From: Rosa chinensis
Taxonomy: Eukaryota > Streptophyta > Magnoliopsida > Rosales > Rosaceae
NCBI RefSeq assembly: GCF_002994745.2
Contig: NC_037091.1
Span: forward strand, 10,044,501 to 10,108,500
Direction: 5' to 3'
DNA: 64,000 nucleotides
Under the pieces are notes generated by a model that was not told the DNA's origin, made no database searches, and saw nothing but the letters and a program-made list of their open reading frames with translations. This document shows, piece by piece, positions 26,991-27,788 of the stretch. Every line of letters begins with the position of its first letter. Position 1 is the first letter of the stretch. Both the position numbers and the translations under genes were made by a program.

Positions 26991-27788
26991 TTAGGGGGCA
27001 ATTCTAAGTGTTCCTACACTAGCGAAGCTACTAAGCTGAGTCAGCGGCTTCGGAAACTTTTTCCAGCTTTGCCCTCGTAGGAAAGGCTGCTCAAGGGAAG
27101 TGTGAGAGCCACCGCCGTGACCGCCACCTCCATCGGAAGTAGTCTTCATGTTGCCAAAGATGTCCTCACCATGCAAGGGAAACAGTGAAAGGGTTTCAAT
27201 CTCCTGGTGATCTTCTCCTCTTTGTTCCATGAAAGTTTGTTCTACATTCATGTCAAAGAAAGTAGAACTAGTTCCCCCTCCAGCTGAGATTGAACAATCC
27301 CTAGCACCCTTCTCCATGTTCATGGATCCATAACCGCCATAGTTCCCCATCTGCCCGTTAAAAGCAATCATCACACCAGTGAAAGAAGCAGAAGCAGGTG
27401 CAGAAGATCCAAAGTTAATATACTGATCCTCATGTTTCCAATTGGTAACATTGTCATCACCAACAAGCCCTGATCTTTGCATGGGCACATGAACATCCGA
27501 AGTGGACCTCTTCTTCTGCTTCTCCCGAGCCCTTTGGTTCACGAACCAATAATAGACGCTTTTGAACTCGATCTTGCCGTACCATTTCAGCTGGAGACAT
27601 ATCCTCTGAATCTGTTCTATAGTTGGGGACCTAAATTCCTTGTTGTAGAAAAGCTCCTTGAGGATTCTTATATGATCTGTAGTGGGAATCCACCTAGTAC
27701 TGCTCTTCCTGCGAAGCATGTTAGCACTACTCCCGGCTACTTTGTTACTTCCTCCATCCTCGGTTGGATGCCGGCTTTGTGGTTCCAT
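26991..27788 (-). CDS. WUSCHEL-type homeobox frame, intronless, antisense inside the Tat element
   Basis: 265 residues. The homeodomain (about 31-94) has TRWIPTTDHIRILKEL, the WUS-class spacing YGKIE, and RAREKQKKR at its end. A WUS box, TLSLFPLHGEDI, is at 199-210. WUSCHEL proteins are nuclear transcription factors that keep stem cells in shoot meristems. Family members usually read WFQN in helix 3; here residues 81-84 are WFVN, so homeodomain position 50 is Val while Asn-51 is kept. The C-terminal EAR-like motif (expected around LELSL) reads SLEQPF, apparently after a small deletion, and the last 15 or so residues come from retroelement sequence. Plant WUS genes have introns and this copy has none, which suggests capture through RNA. 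Expression is unknown; it could be a pseudogene with an open frame. Confidence 0.85.
   Translation of the reverse strand: MEPQSRHPTEDGGSNKVAGSSANMLRRKSSTRWIPTTDHIRILKELFYNKEFRSPTIEQIQRICLQLKWYGKIEFKSVYYWFVNQRAREKQKKRSTSDVHVPMQRSGLVGDDNVTNWKHEDQYINFGSSAPASASFTGVMIAFNGQMGNYGGYGSMNMEKGARDCSISAGGGTSSTFFDMNVEQTFMEQRGEDHQEIETLSLFPLHGEDIFGNMKTTSDGGGGHGGGSHTSLEQPFLRGQSWKKFPKPLTQLSSFASVGTLRIAP

What the first reader, a model, noticed from the sequence alone, without database searches (positions are those of the whole stretch)
26991..27788. An open WUSCHEL-type homeobox frame carried antisense inside a Tat/Ogre retrotransposon
A full-length, intronless WUS-like frame (homeodomain plus WUS box TLSLFPLHGEDI) sits between integrase and 3' LTR of a gypsy element, on the opposite strand. 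The surrounding pol is full of stops, yet this 265-codon frame is unbroken. If the family carries it in many copies, a stem-cell regulator is being spread by a retroelement. Capture through RNA is inferred from the missing introns.
Basis: partly seen in the sequence, partly recalled or inferred. Interest (0 to 1): 0.92.

Follow-up and report, generated by a model that had tools for sequence, protein, structure and literature searches.

The report
Rose retrotransposons carry a stem-cell gene
In the rose genome a spliced copy of WUSCHEL, the gene that keeps plant stem cells going, was picked up by a jumping element, reached two other element families and multiplied to well over a hundred copies whose key protein parts look preserved, which likely explains a puzzling published count of 381 such genes in rose.

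Summary
Confirmed, and larger than guessed. Window 26991-27788(-) is an intronless WUSCHEL (WUS) copy, antisense between integrase and 3' LTR of a complete Tat-type element (LTRs 16192-17474/39782-40990, TSD AGAGT) in Rosa. The native rose WUS gene (L035) has two introns; the old copy L036 lacks both precisely, so capture went through spliced RNA. Of 20 further loci picked from homeodomain hits, 19 hold such a frame, in three LTR types (Tat; Athila-like primer site; initiator-Met primer site), with a TSD verified in each; 9 of 19 have aligned flanking repeats at least 99.6% identical. One search listed 150 dispersed copies, 145 without a stop. Across 24 copies omega is 0.47 in the homeodomain, 0.26 in WUS box+EAR and 0.87 elsewhere, though the youngest set is neutral and sampling is biased. 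The window copy is decaying: a 2-bp deletion shifts its EAR motif out of frame, and its openness is no more than chance. A 2024 paper counted 381 rose WOX genes, 364 in rose-only clades, and left the expansion unexplained; its clade motifs match this cargo. What the cargo does for the elements is inferred, not shown.

The parts
16187..16191 (.). target-site duplication AGAGT, left copy
   Evidence: read
16192..17474 (+). 5' LTR (TGTTTGG...CCAAACA) of the Tat-type element
   Evidence: 95-96% identical to the 3' LTR; ends read
17475..17495 (+). primer-binding site TTTTGGCACGCCCAGTGGGAC
   Evidence: near-identical in L020
19735..20331 (+). gag fragment
   Evidence: PF03732, 4.6e-12
23413..23946 (+). 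reverse transcriptase fragment
   Evidence: PF00078, 1.4e-24
24274..25653 (+). RNase H (PF13456, PF00075) and integrase zinc-binding domain (PF17921)
26381..26414 (+). motif behind pol, repeated at 26994-27028 where the captured gene joins the element
   Evidence: 88.6% over 35 columns
26991..27788 (-). captured WUSCHEL frame, 265 codons: homeodomain, WUS box, frame-shifted EAR end; the last codons are element sequence
27789..27932 (-). captured 5' leader, homologous to native WUS from -144 to the ATG
   Evidence: 89% over 519 bp together with the start of the coding region
29376..30602 (-). antisense frames of the element's additional ORF (211 and 181 aa, no Pfam match)
   Evidence: first frame conserved beside WUS in other loci
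31537..32472 (-). antisense plant mobile domain frame (PF10536)
   Evidence: 2.7e-18
32791..38848 (.). younger LTR element nested in the Tat element (LTRs 99.2% identical)
39770..39781 (+). polypurine tract TCTGGGGGGCAA
39782..40990 (+). 3' LTR
40991..40995 (.). target-site duplication AGAGT, right copy
   Evidence: read

Best explanation
A spliced WUSCHEL transcript was copied into a Tat-type LTR retrotransposon in the rose lineage, antisense between pol and the 3' LTR, as a segment running from 144-221 nt upstream of the ATG to the EAR codons or just beyond. The cassette spread with that family, including forms without recognisable gag-pol, and reached two other LTR types, one with an Athila-like primer site and one with an initiator-Met primer site, in which it multiplied very recently (SHOWN by sequence). 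During this spread the DNA-binding homeodomain and the WUS box and EAR motif (known as corepressor-binding parts; recalled) were under protein-level purifying selection while the linkers drifted (statistical evidence on a limited, partly biased sample). INFERRED: the cargo is translated at some stage into a short WUS-like repressor, and elements that keep it leave more copies, most plausibly because it acts in meristem cells that give rise to the germ line. The window copy is a decaying member of the oldest amplified subfamily.
For: RNA route: native WUS (L035) has introns of 86 and 335 bp with GT...AG borders; L036, 94-97% identical to it, lacks both at the splice sites; the window lacks intron 2 exactly, and intron 1 together with about 31 nt of exon 1 and a few nt of exon 2. 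Mobility: 19 of 20 loci fetched hold the frame; 12 of 19 have flanking direct repeats, 9 of them at least 99.6% identical over the aligned part; TSDs AGAGT (window), CCTCC (L020), GGTCA (L011), ATAAC (L022). Three types: different LTR ends and primer sites, LTR of C without similarity to T or V; WUS antisense where orientation was read (T: window, L020; V: L011; C: L022). Number: 150 rows listed for the type-V protein, 145 without a stop in the match, median neighbour spacing 333 kb. Constraint, stem branch excluded: HD omega 0.47 (P 3e-5), WUS box+EAR 0.26 (P 2e-5), rest 0.87 (P 0.1); the order holds for kappa 2, 3.9 and 8 and without CpG codons.
Against: No expression, small-RNA or protein evidence was available; a published rooting transcriptome found 359 of 364 rose-only members almost silent. 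Set V alone gives omega 1.17, with L023 0.93. Terminal branches show lower omega than internal ones (0.57 against 0.79), the reverse of what selection on active source copies predicts and a hint that well-preserved copies were sampled. Loci L009-L028 were chosen from homeodomain hits with open-frame lengths in view; A-type copies were chosen for similarity to the window and absence of stops. At nucleotide level, in the Tat-type copies, the homeodomain (0.083) is not less diverged than the 140-bp 5' flank (0.075); WUS box to EAR is 0.070, linker 0.144. One LTR of each type is not enriched in WUS-type sites. Antisense orientation is not what simple template switching between two sense RNAs gives.
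Confidence: 0.65

Rival explanations
1. Passive hitch-hiking. The history of capture and spread is the same, but the WUS cassette is inert cargo of successful non-autonomous elements; apparent constraint reflects sampling of well-scoring copies and the youth of the copies.
For: Open frames are expected in copies with near-identical LTRs; set V omega 1.17; terminal branches show the lower omega; the window copy has about as many lesions as its pol would predict; nearly no expression reported.
Against: Domain-specific pattern: WUS box+EAR omega 0.26 and HD 0.47 against 0.87 for the rest of the same frames; the WUS box and EAR were not used to choose loci L009-L028; three LTR types kept the frame; in 3 of 3 type-C elements examined for ORFs the WUS frame is the only internal ORF of 120 aa or more.
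Confidence: 0.28
2. RNA shield or hostage. The element's sense RNA contains antisense WUS; small RNAs against the element would also hit the host's WUS, so the host tolerates it, or the element silences WUS.
For: Antisense orientation where it was read; the window copy shares 94 and L036 402 of 1098 perfect 21-mers with native WUS leader plus coding sequence.
Against: Four of five type-C copies share only 0-1 such 21-mers (L019 shares 46), yet they keep the frame; constraint is on amino acids; dS to native reaches 0.74.
Confidence: 0.06
3. Ordinary host gene-family expansion by genome or tandem duplication, as suggested in the 2024 paper, with transposons nearby by chance.
For: Published suggestion of whole-genome duplication (PMC11405225, section 4.1).
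Against: Introns missing; LTR pairs and TSDs bracket the frames; listed copies are dispersed; the authors found 0 collinear genes.
Confidence: 0.01

Closest known systems
Expanded WOX family of Rosa chinensis (Duan et al. 2024, PMC11405225)
   Same: Its clade IV and V motifs (YGQIEDKNVFFWFQNLKA; TLPLFPMHGEDILGNMKTTSEGG; SHISLELSLNSYRDADMA) closely match the frames of L010 and L026, which lie between LTRs.
   Different: Treated there as host genes, genome duplication suggested, expansion left unexplained; 'transpos' and 'retro' have 0 occurrences in its main text (supplements not seen).
AlkB/2-ODD-bearing Gypsy elements of Phalaenopsis (PMC9289625)
   Same: Host-derived domain in giant Gypsy elements, retained through rounds of replication.
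   Different: One element family and an RNA-modifying enzyme; here a developmental transcription factor, antisense, in three LTR types. The main text of their screen of 121 genomes has 0 hits for 'homeo' (its supplementary chart was not seen).
Antisense additional ORFs between pol and 3' LTR (Grande, RIRE2, Retand; PMC7264820), and PMD frames
   Same: Position and orientation; this element also carries an antisense PMD frame.
   Different: The origin of most of those ORFs is unknown; here the source gene is identified and was spliced.
Bs1 of maize and LTR-captured genes of rice and sorghum (reviewed in PMC13317346)
   Same: Host gene sequence inside LTR retrotransposons.
   Different: Bs1 holds segments of three host genes, none full-length; transduced genes usually lie in sense and in one or a few copies (PMC7264820).
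YgdH/LONELY GUY domain in Citrus LTR elements (PMC9289625)
   Same: Another developmental-regulator domain in LTR elements.
   Different: Cytokinin-related domain, not a transcription factor.

Membership tests
WUSCHEL (WOX WUS clade) | WUS-type homeodomain | tested here: met
   PF00046 4.9e-8; best PDB matches are WUSCHEL by sequence and fold; residues aligned to base-reading R38, N90, R94 kept, Q89 replaced by V
WUSCHEL (WOX WUS clade) | WUS box | tested here: met
   TLSLFPLHGEDI aligned to TLPLFPMHGEDI of native WUS
WUSCHEL (WOX WUS clade) | C-terminal EAR motif | tested here: not met
   frame-shifted in the window copy; an EAR pattern is found in 57 of 68 Rosa clusters
WUSCHEL (WOX WUS clade) | descent from the species' own WUS | tested here: met
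   homology to native L035 across three exons and leader; L036 closest, dS 0.128
LTR retrotransposon, Tat lineage | LTRs, TSD, PBS, PPT | tested here: met
LTR retrotransposon, Tat lineage | two RNase H domains | tested here: inconclusive
   PF13456 clear; a second domain only at E 0.03-0.05, below cut-off
LTR retrotransposon, Tat lineage | antisense additional ORF between integrase and 3' LTR | tested here: met
   PMD at 31537-32472(-)
Ogre | intron separating Gag and Pol; extra ORF before gag (recalled) | not tested
   none
Host gene transduced through RNA | introns removed at splice sites | tested here: met
Host gene transduced through RNA | same strand as gag-pol (usual, not strict) | tested here: not met
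   antisense in the window, L020, L011 and L022

The most novel reading that the evidence does not exclude
Plant counterpart of an oncogene-carrying retrovirus: LTR retrotransposons of rose gained transmission by carrying a selected, shortened WUS-type repressor that acts in the shoot stem-cell niche, the plant's path to the germ line, and the module is traded between unrelated element families.
Probability: 0.22. Interest if true: 0.97.

Novelty: new variant of a known kind. Interest (0 to 1): 0.88.

Why it matters
It would account for a published, unexplained excess of WOX genes in rose (381 against 18 in Arabidopsis by that paper's count) and warns that most of those gene models are probably transposon cargo. 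It makes testable whether plant retroelements can profit from carrying a master regulator of stem cells, and it shows one cargo gene shared by three LTR types.

Tried and rejected
Single dead capture: rejected, many copies. Openness of the window frame as evidence of function: rejected. Self-regulation through WUS sites in the LTRs: five patterns (TGAATGAA, spaced TGAA pairs, TTAATGG, TCACGTGA, plain TGAA) in one LTR of each type were not enriched against up to 200 shuffles; lowest P 0.10. RNA hostage: weak. Viral contigs: no relative. Permutation of per-column changes: WUS box P 0.076, EAR 0.23, helix 3 0.022, HQEIE 0.22, weaker than the codon test. Neutral simulation: 15 unchanged columns of 165 against a mean of 1.4 and maximum of 6 in 150 runs; six short rows were dropped (P0009, P0011, P0020, P0088, P0118, P0143), and the window row also. 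One search used wrong exon borders for native WUS and was redone. One search ended with an error after three regions; all three are reported. The structure model is confident only over the homeodomain (mean pLDDT 57.7). Output was cut.

Full report
OBSERVATION. The frame 26991-27788(-) encodes 265 aa with a homeodomain (Pfam E 4.9e-8; PDB WUSCHEL E 3.7e-24) and a WUS box. It sits in a complete LTR element: LTRs 16192-17474 and 39782-40990 (95-96% identical; K2P 0.045 over 1209 sites), TSD AGAGT, primer site TTTTGGCACGCCCAGTGGGAC and polypurine tract. Gag, RT, RNase H and integrase lie on the plus strand; WUS, two frames without Pfam match and a plant mobile domain frame lie on the minus strand. 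A 6-kb younger element is nested in it.

HOST. The two best of 88 protein hits, and many more, are from Rosa chinensis and R. rugosa. The own genome has 515 Mb, and two of its contigs (88,556,329 and 70,290,800 bases) have the lengths given for R. chinensis contigs. From (120 of 608 hits listed) I collected 68 Rosa protein clusters standing for 371 member sequences. In a tree of the 68 rows long enough to be kept (63 Rosa, the window, four others), the Rosa proteins and the window group together apart from Fragaria, Argentina and Prunus WUS.

NATIVE GENE AND RNA ROUTE. The search with Fragaria WUS found exon matches of a native rose gene at C2:11712718-11713110 and C2:11711808-11712191, minus strand. 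L035 gives a 299-aa protein, 91% identical to Argentina WUS, with introns of 86 and 335 bp bordered GT...AG. The copy L036 matches it at 94-97%, lacks both introns at the splice sites, begins 221 nt before the ATG, ends a few codons after the EAR motif and before the native stop, has three TAG stops and lies antisense beside Tat sequence. The window copy matches native from -144 (89%), lacks intron 2 exactly, and lacks intron 1 together with about 31 nt of exon 1 and a few nt of exon 2. No poly(A) follows the homology in the tails that I read (window, L029, L036), so target-primed retroposition is not indicated. How an antisense insertion arose is not resolved.

COPIES. The genome search with the window protein gave 256 matches (762 candidates, 144 scored); with the type-V protein 158 matches (691 candidates, 150 scored). 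Of the 150 rows listed there, 145 have no stop in the match, 99 lie on C2, and neighbours are a median of 333 kb apart, 14 of 144 closer than 20 kb. I fetched 20 loci of 9.9 kb from the homeodomain hits, picked by me; 19 of 20 hold the frame (not L024), 15 of those 19 without a stop in the matched stretch. Of four window-like copies fetched, L029, L030 and L032 show integrase next to WUS and L031 breaks off at codon 226. L032 encodes P0001 exactly.

THREE ELEMENT TYPES. Type T: window, L015-L018, L020, L025, L027, L028. All but L018 share an antisense frame of the window's additional ORF beside WUS; L018 has T-type LTR sequence and a PMD match (62%) on the other strand. L028 also has RT and integrase in the window's order; L020 shows no gag, RT or integrase match and is complete with TSD CCTCC. 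Type V: L009-L012, L023, L026; in element sense the LTR begins TGATAGG; primer site Athila-like (name recalled); TSD GGTCA in L011. Type C: L013, L014, L019, L021, L022; LTR read in L022 as TGTAATACC...TGACA, primer site TTTGGTATCAGAGC (initiator Met, recalled), TSD ATAAC in L022; L019 and L021 are placed here by shared flanks. The LTR of C shows no similarity to T or V; V and T share 369 bp at 84%. Direct repeats of 100 bp or more flank the frame in 12 of 19 loci and are at least 99.6% identical over the aligned part in 9 (L009-L014, L022, L023, L026); the outer 688 bp of the L011 LTRs, seen later, are 98.8% identical. L020 has 97.5%, L027 99.2% over 258 bp, L019 87%. Of 40 listed type-V LTR hits (3387 candidates), 16 have a WUS copy within 8 kb, taken from the 150 rows and 40 of the 150 rows, against 0.6 expected (maximum 4 in 1000 placements); 4 of 9 LTR pairs have one inside. 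Two of the 16 and one of the 4 are the query element itself.

SELECTION. On a tree of 24 copies rooted with native WUS, stem branch and L036 left out, substitutions were N 73.5/S 58.5 in the homeodomain (omega 0.47, bootstrap 0.28-0.69), 16/25 in WUS box plus EAR (0.26, 0.07-0.54) and 247/106 elsewhere (0.87, 0.71-1.10). With kappa 2 the remainder falls to 0.76 (P 0.01), so 'neutral elsewhere' depends on the mutation model; the contrast does not. Within sets omega was 0.59 (A), 0.52 (B), 0.52 (C) and 1.17 (V). Against a simple reading: terminal branches have omega 0.57 and internal ones 0.79. Among eight B copies pooled pN/pS is 0.37, pairwise dS 0.008-0.123 and dN 0.004-0.038, while the non-coding 5' flank differs by 0.056 (-140 to 0), 0.064 (-300 to -140) and 0.188 (-450 to -300). 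At nucleotide level in A+B copies the homeodomain (0.083) is no more conserved than the 5' flank (0.075). Of the WUS residues that read DNA bases (PMC7203112, passages), those aligned to R38, N90 and R94 are kept in the window and Q89 is V.

WHAT IT MEANS. A 2024 paper (PMC11405225; outline, passages and sections 3.2, 3.3, 4.1 and 4.2 read) counted 381 WOX genes in rose, 226 on chromosome 2, 364 in rose-only clades, 170 in R. multiflora and 105 in R. rugosa, found 0 collinear genes and asked for further evidence. The motifs that it gives for clades IV and V closely match LTR-borne frames here. In the listings of searches I saw no paper linking WUS and retrotransposon capture in rose; most subscription papers are not covered. 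Precedents: antisense ORFs (PMC7264820, part 1 of 3 and passages), orchid AlkB and Citrus LONELY GUY domains (PMC9289625, one section and passages), Bs1 (PMC13317346, passages).

LIMITS. No expression or small-RNA data; sampling biased as stated; orientation, TSD and primer site were read in one or two loci per type; the age of the window insertion (about 1.7 My) rests on a recalled rate of 1.3e-8 per site per year.

Noticed in passing
L020:6475-7929(-): 485-aa frame on the element's sense strand in an element without gag, RT or integrase match; no Pfam family above cut-off.
   Followed up: partly
L010:3793-4320, L011:3675-4202, L012:3789-4316, L026:3747-4274 (-): Frame of 176 aa in each of four type-V elements, on the strand opposite to WUS; the L011 frame has no Pfam match above cut-off.
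   Followed up: partly
proteins P0033, P0040, P0089, P0090, P0091, P0097: The linker holds four copies of an [DN][LI]NFG unit, which resembles the DLN-type repression motif (recalled); the unit occurs in 50 of 68 Rosa clusters.
   Followed up: partly
genome contig C2: Type-V copies are concentrated on one chromosome (99 of 150 listed), as in the published count of 226 of 381 on chromosome 2.
   Followed up: no
window 41617-47008: Direct repeats of 477 bp, 100% identical, 4.9 kb apart: perhaps a very young LTR element just outside the Tat element.
   Followed up: no
window 36832-37822: Tandem array of a GC-rich unit of about 31 bp inside the nested element.
   Followed up: no
L031 (C1:66591741-66592418): Window-like copy cut at codon 226 by a sequence beginning CACTACAACAG, perhaps a CACTA-type insertion.
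   Followed up: no
Citrus, literature (PMC9289625): A LONELY GUY-type domain is reported in Citrus LTR elements: a second developmental regulator in LTR elements, worth a joint look.
   Followed up: no
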